Source: Flavobacterium micromati (lineage in GTDB: Bacteria; Bacteroidota; Bacteroidia; Flavobacteriales; Flavobacteriaceae). From it: 64,000 nucleotides of DNA. This document shows, one piece after another, positions 54,342 through 60,924 of this stretch (within the stretch, counting starts at the first letter, position 1; the number at the start of each line of letters is the position of its first letter). The translations under genes were made by a program, and so were the position numbers. The notes under the pieces were generated by a model. The model worked only from the letters and a program-made list of their open reading frames with translations. It was not told where the DNA came from and did not search any database. The stretch is taken from assembly GCF_900129585.1 (NCBI RefSeq), contig NZ_FQWF01000003.1, positions 186,001-250,000 on the forward strand, in the 5' to 3' direction.

Positions 54342-55094
54342 ATGAAAATAAAGGTTATTATTGTTGATGATGAATTGCATGCTCGTAGTTTTCTAAGAAA
54401 ATTTTGTGAGCGTTATTATAATGAAAGTATTGAAGTACTTGATGAATGCAATTCAGTAGAAAGTGCCGTTAGATCTATAAAAAAAAATCAGCCTGATTTA
54501 GTTTTTTTGGATATTGCTATGCCTGACGAGAATGGATTTGAATTACTAAAGTATTTTGATAAAATCAACTTCGAGATAATTTTTACCACTGCGTACAAAG
54601 AATTTGCCATTCAAGCTATAAGAAATAGTGCTTTGGATTATTTAGTTAAACCTATTAATAATGAAGATTTTCAAGTAGCAATTTCTCGTTTTGAATTTAA
54701 AAAAGACACTAAAATTGATTTTGATCGATTTAAATTGCTAACAGATAACATCAATAACCAGTTTGTAGATAAGCAAAGAATTGTGTTTCCCACTAAAAAT
54801 GGTTTTGAAGTAATTCAGGCCAACACTATTGTTTACTGTAAATCTGATGGTTCTTACACAAGTATTCATACCATTGAAAAAGAACATTTTACCTCTAAAA
54901 CGTTTAAGGAAGTTTGCGAAATACTTGTAGAATCGCACTATATTAAAGTCCATAGAAGTTTCTTAATAAACAAAAATTATATCAAAGGATTTAAAACAGA
55001 TGACTATAATTTAGAAATGATTACCGGTCATATTATTCCTGTTTCGGATGCATTATTTACAAAAAAGAAGCTAATCGATGCCATTACGAATTAG
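54342..55094 (+). CDS. LytTR-family response regulator
   Basis: A 250-residue two-domain regulator. The receiver has acidic pocket VDDE (8-11), phosphoacceptor Asp57 in LVFLDIAMPDENGFELL, and Lys in YLVKPINNEDF. The C-terminal LytTR DNA-binding domain (about 150-250) contains YCKSDGSYTSIHT and VHRSFLINKNYIKGF. It should bind direct repeats upstream of target genes when phosphorylated. It overlaps the kinase gene by 17 bases, so the pair forms a two-component system. Targets are not identifiable here. Confidence 0.93.
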   Translation: MKIKVIIVDDELHARSFLRKFCERYYNESIEVLDECNSVESAVRSIKKNQPDLVFLDIAMPDENGFELLKYFDKINFEIIFTTAYKEFAIQAIRNSALDYLVKPINNEDFQVAISRFEFKKDTKIDFDRFKLLTDNINNQFVDKQRIVFPTKNGFEVIQANTIVYCKSDGSYTSIHTIEKEHFTSKTFKEVCEILVESHYIKVHRSFLINKNYIKGFKTDDYNLEMITGHIIPVSDALFTKKKLIDAITN

Positions 55095-58071
55095 GTTTTC
55101 ACTTTGCTTTTTGTTTCTGGCGTTTCAATCTTTGTTAGCACAATATTTCCCTTCAAAAAATTATTCTACAACAGACGGTTTGCCTAATAATGCCGTACGC
55201 GCTCTTTTTTTAGATTCAAAAAGTGTATTGTGGATTGGTACAGAAAATGGAGTTGCTATAATGGAAAACGGATCTTTTTTAACTATAGATGAATCAAATG
55301 GACTAGGGCATAATAGCTGTTGGGATATTTCTCAAGATGCTAATGGAAAGATGTGGTTTGCGAGTTACGGCGGTGGAGTAAGCAAATATGACGGAAAGAA
55401 ATTCACCGTTTTTACTACTAAAAATGGTCTACCAGCGGATAAAACTAGAAAAGTATTTCCTTTTAAAAATAAAATGTATGTTGGTACAGAGCAAGGCGTT
55501 TCTATTATCGATATCAATAGCCATAAAGTAGTCACGCCAAAAGTTCCCGCTCACAAGGAGGATTTTATTTGTATTTCCTTTTTTGAATATAAAAATGAAG
55601 TTTATTTCACATCTATTTTTGAGGGATTATTTAAAATAGATGAATCTGGCAAAACACCGCAGATTATCTCAATTAAGCGGCACGAAAAATCATATTGTTT
55701 GGGTCTTTTTGGAACCACTTTATATACCGCTAATGATGGTTTTCTTAGTAAGTTTGATATTCAAAATATTGCGAATGGTAATTGGACTTCTTCTAAATTC
55801 GGAAAATCAGTAGTTTGGCAATTTGCGCAAGATAAACGAAATAGTATTTATGCAGCAGCTTGGGGAATTTTCAGCCCTGATGGCGGACTATATCGAATTT
55901 TGGATGATGAAATGATTGATGTTTCTGATTTTTATGGAATTGATTCGAAAGTTATCTTGAATGTGGTTTATGATAAAAGCAAAGATATTTTATATGTAGG
56001 TTCTAATGACAAAGGAGTTTACGAAGTTCGATTAGATCAAATGATTGATTATAATTCCTTTAAAGGAAAATCAATTATAGATTTTGAAGTATTTAACGAT
56101 CAAAAGCTTATTTTACATAACAGAGGAATTTCTTTTTTAGATTCGAAAGGAGCGATTTTAAAAACAGTTTTACGTTCTGATTTTAAGAACAGCGAACTTT
56201 CTTTCCTTAAAAAAGGGAAAAATAGTGTAAGCAAACAAGGTGTTGAATCCAGAGATTTTGAATTAAATTTTAACATTCCTGCTGATGCGATTGAGTTTTA
56301 TGAAATGGTAAAGCATAAAAATTCGATCTGGGTTAGCAGTAATATTGGGATCTTTGAAATAAACCAACACGGAAAAATAATTGCGTACATTCCTAAGCAT
56401 AGTTTGAAATTTGGATTTACTACTAACGATAAATTCATTGAAACCATTACTTATGCAGGAGTCCGAGTGTATGATGACATATATAATTTAAAAGGCAAGC
56501 ATTATTCAAAGTTCGAAAAAAATACTCCGCAATACATTGTTAAAATTCTGAATAACAATAATAAAACCTATTTGCTTTCTGTGTTTAATGGACTATATGT
56601 GTTTCATAACAATCAATTTCAATCGTATTTAGCTGACGGAATTTGGAAAGAGAAAAAATTCAAACACATCACTGTTAATGAAAAAGGGCAGCTAATTTTG
56701 GCAGCCGAATTCGGGAATGTTTTTATAGTGGACGACAAAAAATCATTTGAAATTTTAAAAACTATTGCTAAAAAAGACTTGGTTGGAAATACAATTCTAT
56801 TTCTCGAAGCCTACAAAGATTTCATCCTTATTGGAACTGAAAAGGGCTTAAATATTTATCACAACGGAATAATTAGATTAATTGATAAAGAACAAGGTCT
56901 AAAAGATGGTGCGGTTACAACCTCTCAGATTTTTGAAAATCAATTGTGGTTGGGTACTAAAAATGGCTATTATGTTGTTGATTTAGATAAAGTGGTACAG
57001 GAACAAATTACAGTTGATGCCATCGGTATTAGCAGTTTGGCAATTAATGGTATTGCACTGCCAAAAGAAAAATACAGGTGGTTTCAATATGCATCTAATA
57101 AGTTAGTTTGCGATTATAAAAATAATTCATTTGCTATTAATTTTATTCCAAAAGGACACCTATTTCCCAATAAATTAAAGTATCGTTATCGTCTAAAAAG
57201 TAGTAACCGTTGGAGTCCGTATAGTGATAAAACGAATTTGTATTTATCGTATTTGCCTTATGGGAATTACACAATTGAAGTAGAAGTTTTTGATTCGAAT
57301 GCCGGTAAAGCCACTATTTTTAAGTTGTTGAATATTCAAATTCAGCCGCCATTTTGGTTGACTTGGTGGTTTATTGTGTTGTTTTGCATAGTAATAATTT
57401 GCTTTTTGGTTACAATTATTTTACGGTACAAGTTTAAAGCCAAAGAAAAGGCTCGAATCGAAAAACGTATTGCAGAGACGGAGTCGGACGTTTTATTGAA
57501 TCAAATGAACCCGCATTTTATGTTCAATGCTATTAATACGATTCAACATTTTATTATCAGCAATGATGTCGATAGTTCGCTCAATTTTGTCAGCAAATTA
57601 TCGGGATTGATGCGTCAAACTTTAGAAAATTCATTAGAAAAGAGAATAACTATTGCCGAAGAAATTAATTACCTCAAAGGCTATATCCAAATTGAAAATA
57701 TGCGATTTGGTAATCGTATTGCGGTTGATTTTCAAATCGACCCCAACATTGATTGTAGTTTATACAAAATTCCCACCATGACGCTACAACCTTTTGTAGA
57801 AAATGTGTTTGTTCACGCCTTCAACGACAATTCACAAGATCCCAAGTTACAGCTTTCTTTTCAAATGAAAACTAATGCAGTAATGGTATGTAAAATCATC
57901 GATAATGGTAAAGGGAGTGCATCCTTTACAAAAGTAAAACTTCATAAATCGAAAGGTATTTCATTAACAAAAGAACGGTTGTCACTACTGCAACCTGAAA
58001 TAGAGAATCCTATCACAATTGAATACTCCGAAACTCAAGGAACAACGGTTTATATTTTGTTAGCTATTTAA
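55078..58071 (+). CDS. Propeller-sensor histidine kinase (LytS-type)
   Basis: A 997-residue membrane kinase. It has a signal peptide (MPLRIRFSLCFLFLAFQS), then a periplasmic beta-propeller of regulator-repeat blades (VLWIGTENGVAIMENG, MWFASYGGGVSKYDGKKF, and others, residues 20-640), a Y_Y_Y-type domain (KYRYRLKSSNRWSPYSD, NYTIEVEVFDSN), one membrane helix (about 757-780) and the His-kinase domain. Phosphorylated His813 lies in NQMNPHFMFNAINTIQHF; the ATPase has DNGKG. This is the hybrid-like layout of Bacteroidota sensors, often for glycans. It begins inside the LytTR gene. The ligand is unknown. Confidence 0.92.
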   Translation: MPLRIRFSLCFLFLAFQSLLAQYFPSKNYSTTDGLPNNAVRALFLDSKSVLWIGTENGVAIMENGSFLTIDESNGLGHNSCWDISQDANGKMWFASYGGGVSKYDGKKFTVFTTKNGLPADKTRKVFPFKNKMYVGTEQGVSIIDINSHKVVTPKVPAHKEDFICISFFEYKNEVYFTSIFEGLFKIDESGKTPQIISIKRHEKSYCLGLFGTTLYTANDGFLSKFDIQNIANGNWTSSKFGKSVVWQFAQDKRNSIYAAAWGIFSPDGGLYRILDDEMIDVSDFYGIDSKVILNVVYDKSKDILYVGSNDKGVYEVRLDQMIDYNSFKGKSIIDFEVFNDQKLILHNRGISFLDSKGAILKTVLRSDFKNSELSFLKKGKNSVSKQGVESRDFELNFNIPADAIEFYEMVKHKNSIWVSSNIGIFEINQHGKIIAYIPKHSLKFGFTTNDKFIETITYAGVRVYDDIYNLKGKHYSKFEKNTPQYIVKILNNNNKTYLLSVFNGLYVFHNNQFQSYLADGIWKEKKFKHITVNEKGQLILAAEFGNVFIVDDKKSFEILKTIAKKDLVGNTILFLEAYKDFILIGTEKGLNIYHNGIIRLIDKEQGLKDGAVTTSQIFENQLWLGTKNGYYVVDLDKVVQEQITVDAIGISSLAINGIALPKEKYRWFQYASNKLVCDYKNNSFAINFIPKGHLFPNKLKYRYRLKSSNRWSPYSDKTNLYLSYLPYGNYTIEVEVFDSNAGKATIFKLLNIQIQPPFWLTWWFIVLFCIVIICFLVTIILRYKFKAKEKARIEKRIAETESDVLLNQMNPHFMFNAINTIQHFIISNDVDSSLNFVSKLSGLMRQTLENSLEKRITIAEEINYLKGYIQIENMRFGNRIAVDFQIDPNIDCSLYKIPTMTLQPFVENVFVHAFNDNSQDPKLQLSFQMKTNAVMVCKIIDNGKGSASFTKVKLHKSKGISLTKERLSLLQPEIENPITIEYSETQGTTVYILLAI

Positions 58072-58088
58072 AAATTGAGTATTTTAAG

Positions 58089-58123
58089 AAAGCTCTTGCC
58101 AAGATTTGGTAAGAGCTTTTTTA
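58089..58123 (+). terminator. Terminator of the two-component operon
   Basis: AAGCTCTTGCCAA / TTGGTAAGAGCTT with a 3-base loop, followed by T's, 18 bases past the stop. One G-T pair is included. Confidence 0.85.
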
Positions 58124-58136
58124 GTTTAAAAACCAC

Positions 58137-58176
58137 AAAAGGGGTTTTGTAAGATAAAAAGGGGTTTTGGTAAGAT
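58137..58176. repeat. Tandem GGGGTTTTG direct repeat
   Basis: AAAAGGGGTTTTGTAAGAT is followed at once by AAAAGGGGTTTTGGTAAGAT. It lies just upstream of the promoter of the zinc-finger gene (TTG at 58183), so it is a candidate regulator site. Confidence 0.6.
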
Positions 58177-58182
58177 AAGTAA

Positions 58183-58210
58183 TTGTAAAAAGTATTAGTT
58201 TATATTTTTG
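58183..58210 (+). promoter_or_regulatory. Promoter of the accessory cassette
   Basis: TTG at 58183-58185, a 17-base spacer, and TATTTTTG at 58203-58210, a full TAnnTTTG match, 33 bases before the ATG. Confidence 0.65.
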
Positions 58211-58243
58211 AAGAACAATTAACCAATCAAAAAATTAAACCCT

Positions 58244-58495
58244 ATGTCAAATTTTTATTGTGAATACTGCGGAACAAAAAGTTCCAGTATATCGAGTTTA
58301 ACAGGAAGTTCCTGCAGCCGACATCCACTTGGAGGTAATAAAGGCAGGCACAAATTATATGAAGGAAGTGAAAAATCAAAATACAGCTGTAAGTATTGCG
58401 GAACCTCATCTTCCTCCATTTCAAGTCTAACAGGAAATTCATGTTCAAGACATCCGAACGGGAGTAATAAAGGGAAACACGCAGCGGCGTTGTAA
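58244..58495 (+). CDS. Small tandem zinc-finger protein
   Basis: An 83-residue protein made of two near-identical units: YCEYCGTKSSSISSLTG then SSCSRHPLGGNKGRH (5-36), and SCKYCGTSSSSISSLTG then NSCSRHPNGSNKGKH (48-79). Each has CxxC and CxxH, so Cys6, Cys9, Cys24 and His27, and Cys49, Cys52, Cys67 and His70, are likely zinc ligands. A linker KLYEGSEKSKY joins them. The units use different serine codon families (AGY versus TCN) at matching positions, so the duplication is old and selected at protein level. It is the first gene of a cassette with its own promoter. DNA-, RNA- or protein-binding is open. Confidence 0.75.
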   Translation: MSNFYCEYCGTKSSSISSLTGSSCSRHPLGGNKGRHKLYEGSEKSKYSCKYCGTSSSSISSLTGNSCSRHPNGSNKGKHAAAL

Positions 58496-58548
58496 TTACA
58501 TAAGTTTTCTGAATATAATTTATTTTGTTAACCAAAAGCACATCAATT

Positions 58549-58986
58549 ATGAATGATCAAAATTTTGTTTCAAAGTTTGAAAGAATATATGAAAATACTA
58601 ATGTTGCATTACAAAATGTTGACACTGCATTCGAAAATTATAATTCTATTTTTTCCCAAGTTGATTATACAGTAGATAAGATAGGAATGATAATCCTTCA
58701 AGCTAAAGAAATTGAAAAATCGATAAAAATTATGGATTGTCAAGTTGAAATAATGTGTAAAGAATTTGACATGAGAATCGAAAAATGTAAAATTCAAGCA
58801 AATTTAATACAAAATGTTCTGCCGAGCTTTTCTAATACTACAAATTCGATTTTGAATGAAATATTGAATATGGATAGTTATAGTAACGATCATAATTATA
58901 TAAGACATAGGTCAGAATTAATTGGAACTTTACGGAGCACATCTGATAATATTACTAATATGGTAATAACTTTTATGTCAATTTAA
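58549..58986 (+). CDS. Helical protein of unknown function
   Basis: A 145-residue soluble protein, starting MNDQNFVSKFERIYENTN, with long amphipathic helices (for example IGMIILQAKEIEKSIKIMDC and EIMCKEFDMRIEKCKI) suggesting coiled coils. Three Cys residues lie in the middle. No signal peptide or recognisable domain. The spacer to the zinc-finger gene is 53 bases and to the next gene 11. I infer one transcript, though no family ties the genes. Confidence 0.7.
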   Translation: MNDQNFVSKFERIYENTNVALQNVDTAFENYNSIFSQVDYTVDKIGMIILQAKEIEKSIKIMDCQVEIMCKEFDMRIEKCKIQANLIQNVLPSFSNTTNSILNEILNMDSYSNDHNYIRHRSELIGTLRSTSDNITNMVITFMSI

Positions 58987-58997
58987 AAAAAAAGGTT

Positions 58998-60236
58998 ATG
59001 AGTTATACAATACAAGAGAAACTTAAGGGTTTAAGGACGGACATTGATTTGATAGAAAAGGAAATAATTATTATTTCTGAATTGGCTGCTGAAGTTTCAG
59101 AAAAATTTCAAGGTTTAGCAAATAATATTCAAAATTTATCGGGTATTGTCGGTTTTTTTGCAGGTAGAAAAGCTGGAGGTGCTACTAATTTAATTGGAGG
59201 AGCTATTGGATTCTTTGGGGATATCTATGCTGGGATGAAACATGATGAGGCACTTGCTAAATTAGCTCCGAAAAAGTTAGCCTTATCAAGAGCAAAGTTG
59301 GAAACAATTACAAATTTTCGAGATTTACTTGATAATAATAGTGAAAATTATTGGAAATTATTCCTTGTAGAAGCTAACAGACAATACAATACTGATCAGC
59401 AAGATGAATTTGTTATGCTTTATGGTGAATCGTGCAACGATGCATTCTACCTCTTTGTTATGAACTTTTATCTGATTCAGGTTTGTGATTATATGTTAGA
59501 ACAATTTAAATCTTGGGGATGGTCAAACGGAAAAAATGACAGCACCACTGCTGTAAAACCAAATAAAACCTATGTATTAGAAGAGATTGTAACAAATGTA
59601 ATTTTGCCTAACACCAGTTTTCTCGAAGCTGTGTCAAGTAAAGAGTCAAGTGGCGGAATTTGGTTAATGTCTCAACACGAATCTCTTTTCGCAGTTTTAT
59701 TGCAAAAAATAGTAAGTGAAGCAGAGAATGATGACGCAAATAATAAAAAAAGGGTAGCCAATAAAAAATCTTTTATTGCTTTAAAAAAAGATTTAAAAGC
59801 AATGAAAAATATTGAAAACGAAGATCCTGCTATCTGGTTAAAAGGAAATAAAGTTTATCAACAAGCCAACTCCGTGTGCAAAATTACTTCAATAAATCAC
59901 TATTTATTTAAATATTTTTTTATTGGAATATTTTGCTTTTTATTATTGCCAATTACGGAAATATTAGATTACGATTTATCATACATATATCAAAAAGTCG
60001 TTGAGAAATTAATATTGGCTTTATTTGTAGCATTAATTTTGAGTGGTGTAGCAAGAATTTTACTTTGGGCTAAAGAAAGCGATGATGGAAGTAAATCAAT
60101 CTATTACTACATATTTTATTTATTTATTTCTGTTTTCACTCTCGGTTTGATGCCTATTTTAATTTTTAGATATCAGAAAAAAGAAAAAAATTATGGTATA
60201 TTTTTAGTTCAATTAAACGGAACAATAAATAGTTGA
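58998..60236 (+). CDS. Membrane protein of unknown function, accessory cassette
   Basis: A 412-residue protein. The first 60 residues are helical. Residues 45-80 hold a Gly/Ala/Phe-rich hydrophobic stretch (GIVGFFAGRKAGGATNLIGG). A soluble, aromatic-rich middle follows (GESCNDAFYLFVMNFYLIQV). Residues 300-400 contain three predicted transmembrane helices (FKYFFIGIFCFLLLPITEIL, KLILALFVALILSGVARIL, and YYYIFYLFISVFTLGLMPIL). It does not match a family I know. The stop at 60234-60236 is followed, in the same frame, by a second stop and then an open TerB/SHOCT-like tail, so the protein may once have been longer. Confidence 0.7.
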   Translation: MSYTIQEKLKGLRTDIDLIEKEIIIISELAAEVSEKFQGLANNIQNLSGIVGFFAGRKAGGATNLIGGAIGFFGDIYAGMKHDEALAKLAPKKLALSRAKLETITNFRDLLDNNSENYWKLFLVEANRQYNTDQQDEFVMLYGESCNDAFYLFVMNFYLIQVCDYMLEQFKSWGWSNGKNDSTTAVKPNKTYVLEEIVTNVILPNTSFLEAVSSKESSGGIWLMSQHESLFAVLLQKIVSEAENDDANNKKRVANKKSFIALKKDLKAMKNIENEDPAIWLKGNKVYQQANSVCKITSINHYLFKYFFIGIFCFLLLPITEILDYDLSYIYQKVVEKLILALFVALILSGVARILLWAKESDDGSKSIYYYIFYLFISVFTLGLMPILIFRYQKKEKNYGIFLVQLNGTINS

Positions 60237-60248
60237 TTAAGCGGATAA

Positions 60249-60443
60249 TCTGTAGAGTTAAAAAAACAATTGTCTTCAATCGAAGATTTAAATGAAAACG
60301 AACAAGAGCACATTGAAGAGTATCAGGAACTTCTAATAGATGGTAGTATATCTGATAAAGAAAGAAAAATGTTAAACAGAATGGCTACTAGGCTAGCTAT
60401 TCCAGAGGAAAGAGTGAGTGAATTGGAAACCATTTACACTTAA
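60249..60443 (+). pseudogene. TerB/SHOCT-like C-terminal fragment
   Basis: Open frame of 64 codons before the stop at 60441, lacking an ATG near its start; TTG at 60270 is a possible start. It reads LNENEQEHIEEYQELLID, then GSISDKERKMLNRMATRLAI and PEERVSELE. This acidic two-helix motif with a G-x-I-S-x-x-E-R centre typically ends larger tellurite/SHOCT-type proteins. It is in the same frame as the 58998 gene, from which only two stop codons (60234 TGA, 60246 TAA) separate it. It may be a detached C-terminus of that gene or a small gene of its own. Confidence 0.55.
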
Positions 60444-60479
60444 ACTATTTCTTTTTTTAGAGAAAAGATTAAATTAGTT

Positions 60480-60514
60480 AAGCCTTTAACACTAATAGTT
60501 AAAGGCTTTTGTTG
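60480..60514 (+). terminator. Terminator of the accessory cassette
   Basis: AAGCCTTTAAC / GTTAAAGGCTT with a 7-base loop and following T's, 37 bases after the TerB-like stop. Confidence 0.85.
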
Positions 60515-60681
60515 TTCAATAGACAGAACGAGGCGTTCATCACTTTAAAATAGGTGTTAACAAAGTGTTTAATGAAAATGGAAAGAGTTGTTTTATTTTT
60601 GTGTTCCAAATCATAAGGTGTTTTGCTGCTGTTTTAAAAAAAATAATAGCGACAATTCAATCTTATTCAAATCACACAACT

Positions 60682-60924
60682 ATGCTACCACTAAAAAAAG
60701 GTCTTAAAGTTATTTCATTTACATTAAGGATTTCAGCTGTAATATTGCTAATCTCTTTTGGAGTATTTTGGCTTTTGGATATACTATTCTCAAACATAAA
60801 TTATCAGAATGAAGGACCATATTGGCTAGCTTGTATCTTTATTATTTTTGGAACCTATAGCTTTTTATGGAAGCAAATTATCAGGTTTACTGGATTTAAT
60901 GAAATCATAGAATTAGAAAATTAA
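60682..60924 (+). CDS. Small two-helix membrane protein
   Basis: An 80-residue protein starting MLPLKKGLKVISFTLRISA with two transmembrane helices (VILLISFGVFWLLDILF and YWLACIFIIFGTYSFLW). Its function is unknown. An in-frame GTG at 60565 would add 39 residues with another hydrophobic stretch. I favour the ATG because positive residues then precede the first helix. It is separated from the cassette by a terminator. Confidence 0.55.
   Translation: MLPLKKGLKVISFTLRISAVILLISFGVFWLLDILFSNINYQNEGPYWLACIFIIFGTYSFLWKQIIRFTGFNEIIELEN

What the first reader, a model, noticed from the sequence alone, without database searches (positions are those of the whole stretch)
58244..60443. Unknown accessory cassette: tandem zinc finger, helical protein, multi-helix membrane protein, TerB/SHOCT-like tail
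A group with its own promoter, an upstream tandem repeat and a downstream terminator, bounded by ordinary genes. None of the three full proteins fits a family I can name, yet the parts (small Zn finger, coiled coil, glycine-rich membrane protein, TerB-like tail) resemble membrane-linked stress or conflict systems. Cassette organisation and lack of a housekeeping role make it the best candidate for an undescribed system.
Basis: partly seen in the sequence, partly recalled or inferred. Interest (0 to 1): 0.7.

Follow-up and report, generated by a model that had tools for sequence, protein, structure and literature searches.

The report
Zinc-finger-headed cassette with swappable membrane cargo
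This small group of genes belongs to a family of bacterial gene cassettes that share one small zinc-finger gene at the front and carry changing cargo behind it, much of it immune- or membrane-related, and I found no description of the family.

Summary
The cassette is real. The window (a Flavobacterium) holds a tandem zinc-finger (ZnF) gene, a helical protein, a 412-aa membrane protein and a terminator, between a LytS/LytTR two-component pair and a small membrane gene; a relative (G511) has the empty site. The "TerB/SHOCT tail" is not part of the system: it is the last ~60 codons of a different cargo protein that sits directly behind ZnF in other genomes, so it looks like the scar of a cargo swap. 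ZnF is the unifying element. I hold 63 distinct ZnF loci (Bacteroidota, Spirochaetota, Verrucomicrobiota), where it is usually the first gene of an operon. Genes behind it are richer in GmrSD-like, dynamin-like GTPase and DEDDh exonuclease proteins than control genes from the same contigs. In Flavobacterium the cassettes recur behind one kinase gene with six cargo types; in 7 of 13 such loci a shared footprint, perhaps a LytTR site, precedes ZnF. The helical+membrane pair is a rare module: one full and one contig-cut relative in the genus, none detected outside. Best reading: a modular membrane-acting conflict (probably anti-phage) cassette, perhaps under two-component control. Anatomy and cargo exchange are shown; defence is inferred and untested.

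The parts
54342..55094 (+). Response regulator with LytTR DNA-binding domain (flank; candidate controller of the cassette)
   Evidence: Pfam Response_reg 6.3e-21, LytTR 9.6e-16
55078..58071 (+). LytS-type sensor kinase (Reg_prop, Y_Y_Y, His_kinase); left boundary of the insertion site
   Evidence: Pfam; 13 of 199 sampled genus genomes carry a copy of at least 50% identity; empty or other-cargo sites behind it
58084..58124 (+). Terminator-like hairpin behind the kinase gene
   Evidence: fold -23.3 kcal/mol, z -7.5
58137..58178 (+). Direct repeat AAAAGGGGTTTTGGTAAGAT x2 (20-bp spacing), candidate LytTR-type operator centred near -60
   Evidence: TRF; lies in a footprint alignable in 9 kinase-linked regions; a profile made from those 9 hits only them among the loci held (circular); lag test marginal; absent from L067 and the more distant kinase loci
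58203..58210 (+). TANNTTTG-type promoter box of the ZnF operon
   Evidence: sequence; enrichment 28 of 63 vs 35 of 630; that this is the Bacteroidota -7 box is recalled
58244..58495 (+). ZnF: 83-aa tandem zinc finger, the shared head gene of the cassette family
   Evidence: alignment A1 of 20 chosen rows, invariant C6 C9 C24 H36 C49 C52 C67 H70 H79; 42 genome loci, 4 plasmid records; model pLDDT 86
58549..58986 (+). hel: 145-aa helical protein, first half of the two-gene cargo module
   Evidence: relatives L122 (61%) and L117 (20%), each just before a mem relative; dN/dS 0.33
58998..60236 (+). mem: 412-aa protein, helical N-terminus with Gly-rich stretch, 3 C-terminal TM segments
   Evidence: no family match (none at E below 0.02); relatives L122 (59%) and L117 (19%, cut by contig end); hydropathy
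60246..60443 (+). Remnant of the C-terminus of a different ZnF-linked cargo protein (TerB-like helical tail); scar of cargo replacement
   Evidence: 34 of 60 positions identical to the end of the L100 702-aa protein (my count); blastn 69% over 135 nt to L101; PDC-S48 6.5e-5
60480..60508 (+). Terminator of the cassette
60530..60564 (+). Second direct repeat (21-bp spacing by eye) before the small membrane gene, alignable in the empty site L124
60682..60924 (+). Small protein with 2 hydrophobic segments, right flank of the insertion
   Evidence: its relative follows the kinase directly in G511 (L124); hydropathy

Best explanation
It is one member of a family of modular conflict cassettes. A conserved tandem zinc-finger protein is expressed first, usually from its own promoter, followed by interchangeable effector genes; here the effector is a paired helical protein plus a membrane protein. 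Proposed working: a LytS-type kinase/LytTR regulator pair next door senses an envelope signal (for example phage attack or membrane damage) and switches the cassette on through a direct-repeat operator; ZnF acts as an adaptor or sensor; the helical protein keeps in check or assembles with the membrane protein, which acts on the inner membrane (anchor, channel or disruption) to stop the invader or the infected cell. Shown: the anatomy, the empty site, cargo exchange, the recurrent pair, ZnF as usual first gene, and an excess of defence-type cargo behind ZnF. Inferred: operator function, ZnF as adaptor, the membrane action and the anti-phage purpose.
For: ZnF is usually first in an operon: next gene co-directional in 57 of 62 loci and within 115 nt in 45 of 62, against 146 of 306 for control genes; a co-directional gene within 115 nt upstream in only 10 of 58, against 145 of 307 controls. 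First and second genes behind ZnF (54+40 = 94 proteins from 54 of 63 loci) against 95 of 96 control genes from the same loci: GmrSD_N 12, Dynamin_N 8, MMR_HSR1 8 (overlapping with Dynamin_N), RNase_T 5, DUF1232 3, EcsC 2; none of these is among the 25 families shown for the controls, whose counts run down to 1. PADLOC: SspE/HEC-06/Orf5 models up to 12 members, LeoA 7, LeoBC 6, PDC-S48 7 (25 of 113 families shown). EcsC cargo at the kinase site matches PDC-S29 at 2.7e-85 (L043). An IRG-like GTPase (IIGP 1.7e-44) lies upstream of ZnF in Algoriphagus. Hotspot: 8 of 22 ZnF copies in the genus sample lie right behind this kinase or a relative of it, though a kinase of at least 50% identity occurs in only 13 of 199 genomes. 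Empty site in G511. Cargo-swap scar. Envelope link: one ZnF protein is fused to an SH3 domain and a TM-like segment, and mem has 3 TM-like segments.
Against: No member has been tested here. hel and mem match no defence model, PHROG, Pfam or NCBIfam family convincingly (hel has a few weak PHROG hits, best 0.0023, which I take as coiled-coil noise) and no solved structure. The mem model failed (pLDDT 41), so pore or anchor is a guess. The pair occurs without ZnF in G783 and, in G525, with another gene in its place, so ZnF is not needed for it. PADLOC control: the 95 control genes matched more models in all (186, against 113 for the cargo), mad2 in 5 members and the other 24 shown in one each (MTase, AbiE, PDC), so the excess concerns particular families, not PADLOC hits as such. 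Several GmrSD loci share one 561-aa gene; counting 7 instead of 12 and assuming one hidden control hit gives Fisher p 0.03. Some ZnF neighbours look ordinary (carbonic anhydrase, ABC transporter, amidase). The footprint before ZnF is in only 7 of 13 kinase-linked ZnF loci; L067, with an equally similar kinase, lacks it. The lag-21 signal barely exceeds shuffles (9.4 vs 9.0 maximum), other lags are close, and in most single loci the best lag is not 21. Genome-wide I searched only the second repeat's pattern, with 3 hits against 6 in the control.
Confidence: 0.5

Rival explanations
1. Envelope-stress cassette: ZnF and membrane cargo (TM2, EcsC, DUF1232, dynamin-like, SH3-TM) maintain or repair the cell envelope under control of the neighbouring kinase, with no role against phage.
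For: Membrane-linked cargo types; LytS/LytTR neighbour; SH3-TM-ZnF fusion; hydrophobic N-terminal extensions of ZnF in 12 of 63 loci, 10 of them Bacteroidales.
Against: GmrSD-like nucleases and DEDDh exonucleases are frequent behind ZnF and do not fit envelope upkeep; very patchy distribution and cargo turnover resemble arms-race genes.
Confidence: 0.25
2. Toxin-antidote (addiction or inter-bacterial) module: mem is a membrane toxin, hel its partner or immunity protein, and ZnF a regulator; selection is for retention or competition.
For: Two-gene module of small helical plus membrane protein that recurs as a pair (L122, L117); transposase-like genes (by eye) beside it in G783.
Against: No toxin or antitoxin family hit for hel or mem (mem has one weak PHROG hit named hemolysin, 0.14); no relative of mem in the plasmid or phage collections.
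Confidence: 0.12
3. Passenger model: the kinase's 3' end is a permissive insertion site, ZnF is an independent small regulator that merely has a good promoter, and the cargo are unrelated passengers.
For: Cargo is very diverse, and the pair exists without ZnF; ordinary genes appear too.
Against: Cargo is not random: GmrSD and dynamin-type excess over same-contig controls, and ZnF is followed by such cargo in other phyla away from the kinase.
Confidence: 0.13

Closest known systems
GTPase-centric conflict systems (Kaur et al. 2020, PMC7159879; two passages seen)
   Same: GTPases with zinc ribbons and membrane-spanning components in variable operons, predicted to act near the membrane
   Different: There the zinc ribbons are N-terminal parts of the DO-GTPases; here ZnF is a separate, conserved tandem protein before GTPase and non-GTPase cargo alike; 'dynamin', 'DUF1232' and 'SHOCT' do not occur in that main text
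LeoA/LeoBC bacterial dynamins (PADLOC models; PMC4159319 seen as listing and abstract start)
   Same: Dynamin-like GTPase cargo behind ZnF matches these models
   Different: ZnF matches no PADLOC model below 0.04; the window cassette has no GTPase
PDC-S48 / TerB-like tail
   Same: The window remnant and the L064 and L100 proteins match about positions 225-273 of the 411-position model; the exonuclease behind ZnF in L104 matches its positions 4-171
   Different: The window copy is a 3' remnant without its main domain
Defence hotspots with swapped cargo (general knowledge, recalled; a Pseudomonas example appears in the listing)
   Same: Constant flanks, variable cargo, empty sites
   Different: The constant part includes a head gene and possibly a two-component pair

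Membership tests
Classical C2H2 zinc finger | Significant match to the zf-C2H2 model | tested here: not met
   E 2.9e-4, 21.6 bits, below the 25.2-bit cut-off; best PDB sequence hit 0.006; no fold match at E <= 0.001
Zinc-binding tandem finger (general) | Two repeats of conserved Cys/His ligand sets | tested here: met
   C6 C9 C24 H36 and C49 C52 C67 H70 H79 invariant in the 20 rows chosen; outside these rows L070, L114, L115 and L116 diverge and L071 has one finger. Zinc binding itself not testable
TerB / SHOCT | Match above family cut-off in the tail | tested here: not met
   TerB E 0.096, 13.4 bits against a 24.4-bit cut-off; no SHOCT match listed
Known PADLOC defence system (window cassette) | ZnF, hel or mem matches a defence model | tested here: not met
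   ZnF best 0.047, hel best 0.024, mem none; only the tail remnant matches PDC-S48
Defence-type cargo (ZnF loci in general) | Genes behind ZnF enriched for defence-type families against local controls | tested here: met
   For GmrSD and dynamin-type families; modest after removing near-copies (p 0.03); total number of PADLOC models matched is not higher than in controls (113 vs 186)
LytTR-regulated promoter | Direct repeat about two helical turns apart upstream of the promoter, near -60 | tested here: inconclusive
   Repeat 58137-58178 centred about -60 from the inferred start; alignable footprint in 9 regions but absent from others; lag test marginal. AgrA repeats near -60: PMC4227749 passages
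Helical pore-forming protein | Helical bundle with hydrophobic hairpin; relation by sequence or fold | tested here: inconclusive
   No sequence relative in the PDB; model too poor for a fold search
Housekeeping complex | Universal presence and a profile hit to a housekeeping family | tested here: not met
   mem in 4 of 398 genus genomes, one of them weak; ZnF in 19 of 299

The most novel reading that the evidence does not exclude
The tandem ZnF is a shared 'front-end' protein of an undescribed immune platform spanning at least three bacterial phyla. One conserved adaptor or sensor, expressed first, licenses many interchangeable effectors (GmrSD nucleases, dynamin/IRG-like GTPases, EcsC and TM2 membrane proteins, exonucleases, and the new hel+mem pair), and in Flavobacterium it has been put under an envelope-sensing two-component system at a dedicated docking site.
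Probability: 0.3. Interest if true: 0.82.

Novelty: new variant of a known kind. Interest (0 to 1): 0.6.

Why it matters
If ZnF is a common front end, one small gene becomes a search handle for unknown immune cassettes (63 distinct loci here), and one protein could be tested against many effectors. The site behind the kinase gives a natural series of empty, occupied, swapped and decayed alleles in one genus, so regulation by a two-component system and cargo exchange can be tested directly. Bacterial IRG- and dynamin-like GTPases beside the same gene would also bear on the origins of cell-autonomous immunity.

Tried and rejected
Tail as a working fourth protein or SHOCT domain: rejected (stops in frame, no good start, not seen in L122, matches the end of other cargo). 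Hel or mem as relatives of the other helical cargo families (A9, A10, A11): hhalign probability 0.23% or less (shallow profiles). Fold of mem: model pLDDT 41, so no fold search was made. ZnF fold search in the PDB: nothing at E <= 0.001. Relatives of mem in plasmids, phages, viral contigs and the genome-contig pattern scan, and of the cassette DNA in phages: none. RNA families: four sub-threshold matches, treated as chance. Second repeat's motif as a genome-wide regulon: 3 hits against 6 in the reversed control; the first repeat was not searched genome-wide. Weak mem matches (28 of 299 at E <= 0.1, own genome included): only own and G525 pass 0.001. The G555 match (79 columns, 9.3e-4) is probably chance. 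Literature: no description of this ZnF family or its cassettes in the result listings (open-licence PMC papers only; in PMC12839542 and PMC7159879 I saw passages; most subscription papers are missing).

Rows dropped before counts: 89 ZnF ORF hits collapsed to 63 loci by identical downstream sequence; 9 of these lacked a co-directional next gene under 500 nt; one of 96 control genes was left out (L106 edge gene). L036 is labelled a Bacilli MAG but looks like the Dysgonomonas/Parabacteroides loci and may be misbinned, so no fourth phylum is claimed. Names given by eye, without a family search: HNH-like for the 144-aa gene of L056/L117 (Pfam gave nothing above cut-off; PADLOC PDC-M40B 8.8e-6 for L056), the transposase in L122, and the flanking peptidase and cupin in L124.

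Full report
What is there. The window lies in a 3.69-Mb, 40-contig assembly. Four same-genus contigs (L102, L103, L105, L110) have the lengths of named Flavobacterium records, so the genus is taken as Flavobacterium. Between a LytTR response regulator/LytS-type kinase pair (54342-58071) and a small membrane gene (60682-60924) sit ZnF (83 aa), hel (145 aa), mem (412 aa) and a further open frame of 57 aa. A strong hairpin follows the kinase gene. A direct repeat and a TANNTTTG box follow, then ZnF; a second hairpin closes the cassette. dN/dS is below 1 for all three genes.

Empty site. In G511 (L124) a kinase 66% identical is followed directly by a relative of the same small membrane gene, a 113-aa gene, and genes that by eye are the same M28 peptidase and cupin. 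The window aligns with that site from about 60512 rightwards, so about 2.4 kb (58072-60511) is extra in the window. Behind the 13 kinase copies of at least 50% identity in 199 sampled genomes: 4 have an intact ZnF next to the kinase (own, G485, G403, G523); G525's copy is cut by a contig end, with a kinase end plus ZnF on another contig; 6 are without it (G511, G432, G507, G536, G415, G443); G482 has a decayed ZnF start (stop after about 12 codons) before an EcsC-like gene; G540 ends too soon to tell.

Cargo differs. In 13 kinase-linked ZnF loci (L030, L031, L043, L046, L056, L057, L059, L067, L097, L107, L111, L113, L118) I count six cargo types: hel+mem; EcsC; a ~180-aa TM family (with DUF1232 in L097); a ~190-aa TM family; an HNH-like gene (by eye) plus GTPase; helical plus TPR/TM2 plus a 273-aa protein. 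Some of these loci are close relatives, so this is not 13 independent events, and several of the kinases are only about 45-50% alike in their last 230 residues.

Scar. The 57-aa open frame is in the same frame as mem behind two stops. Its protein matches the very C-terminus of the 702-aa L100 protein (34 of 60 positions by my count of the alignment) and that of the L101 protein, which there continues in another frame (69% DNA identity over 135 nt). Both of those proteins sit directly behind ZnF (12 and 21 nt). The relative of mem in G783 ends at the same C-terminus without this tail. The simplest reading is that an L100-type cargo was replaced by hel+mem and left its last codons behind.

The pair. 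mem is rare: only the window's own genome among 397 family genomes and 395 order genomes; own, G525, G783 and one doubtful match among 398 genus genomes. In G783 hel and mem are adjacent without ZnF, with transposase-like genes behind (by eye). In G525 hel and a contig-cut mem follow the kinase end behind the HNH-like gene. The pair is thus a module of its own. It has no convincing family or solved-structure match and the mem model was too poor to use.

The head gene. ZnF relatives: 42 genome loci, one close and one distant (33%) viral-contig match, three Myroides plasmid records and one Hymenobacter plasmid; 19 of 299 genus genomes with 22 copies; one copy in the window's own genome. In the 20 rows aligned, which span Bacteroidota, Brachyspira/Treponema and a Verrucomicrobiaceae MAG, all six Cys and three His positions named in the parts list are invariant; a few other loci are diverged or truncated. 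Among 63 distinct loci the next gene is co-directional in 57 of 62 and within 115 nt in 45 of 62, against 146 of 306 controls; a co-directional gene within 115 nt upstream is found in 10 of 58, against 145 of 307 controls; a promoter box lies upstream in 28 of 63, against 35 of 630. So ZnF is usually, not always, first: in Algoriphagus (L040) it comes last.

What follows it. 94 first/second genes (54 of 63 loci) against 95 control genes more than 4.5 kb away: GmrSD_N 12, Dynamin_N 8, MMR_HSR1 8, RNase_T 5, DUF1232 3, EcsC 2 (25 of 58 families shown); none of these is in the 25 of 124 families shown for the controls, which cannot exclude one hidden single hit each. PADLOC gives SspE/HEC-06/Orf5, LeoA, LeoBC and PDC-S48 models; the controls match more models in all (186 against 113), but of the 25 shown only mad2 has more than one member (5). 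Several GmrSD loci share a 561-aa gene also seen on a Myroides plasmid, so the excess is smaller once near-copies are merged (p 0.03 with 7, assuming 1 in controls). Algoriphagus has an IIGP-type GTPase upstream of ZnF.

Regulation. The region between kinase and ZnF carries a footprint alignable in nine regions (window, L030, L031, L043, L097, L111, L113, and L125 and L128, which lack an intact ZnF). It is missing from L067, whose kinase is as similar, and from the five loci with more distant kinases. In the window it is a near-exact direct repeat of 20 bp; in the others a repeat of about 21 bp can be seen by eye, but the lag test is marginal, and the profile that finds these sites alone was made from them. 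A second repeat precedes the small membrane gene and aligns with the empty site. Published AgrA sites are direct repeats centred near -60 (PMC4227749 passages), about where the window's repeat lies relative to the inferred start. Control by the neighbouring regulator is therefore a hypothesis.

Envelope link. One ZnF protein is fused behind a signal-peptide-like start, a bacterial SH3 domain and a TM-like segment (L116), and 12 of 63 loci, 10 of them Bacteroidales, show a hydrophobic N-terminal stretch. This fits membrane-acting cargo, though the topology of ZnF may differ between groups.

Conclusion. A modular, swap-prone cassette family with a conserved zinc-finger head is shown. That it is an immune platform is likely but unproven; that hel+mem acts on the membrane is a reasoned guess.

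Noticed in passing
L116:5979-6662 (-): ZnF fused behind a signal-peptide-like start, a bacterial SH3 domain and a TM-like segment, so ZnF can be tethered to the envelope.
   Followed up: partly
L128, about 170 nt behind the kinase stop: Decayed ZnF start (stop after about 12 codons) in front of an EcsC-like gene: head gene lost while the cargo is kept.
   Followed up: partly
L040:5198-6298 (+): Algoriphagus IIGP-type (IRG-like) GTPase and a 155-aa gene upstream of ZnF, downstream of a related kinase.
   Followed up: partly
L050, L051, L054, L055, L060-L063, L065, L066, L068: Bacteroidales ZnF frames extend upstream into signal-peptide or TM-like N-termini (L063 slightly below the cut used); the start codon used is uncertain.
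   Followed up: no
window 60530-60564: Second direct repeat before the small membrane gene, alignable at the empty site in G511.
   Followed up: partly
L101:5941-8007 (-): ZnF-linked 650-aa cargo gene with an apparent frameshift near its end; the TerB-like tail continues in another frame.
   Followed up: partly
L111, kinase gene upstream of ZnF: The kinase frame is split into 854- and 135-aa pieces in G618, so the kinase may be broken there while ZnF is kept.
   Followed up: no
L032, L072, L073, L114, L115: ZnF plus a same-length (561-aa) GmrSD-like gene on a Myroides plasmid, a viral contig and Flavobacterium/Bacteroidetes contigs, suggesting recent transfer.
   Followed up: no
L035, L036, L038: Very similar ZnF regions with a metallophosphoesterase-like gene (by eye) upstream in Dysgonomonas, Parabacteroides and a MAG labelled Bacilli.
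   Followed up: no
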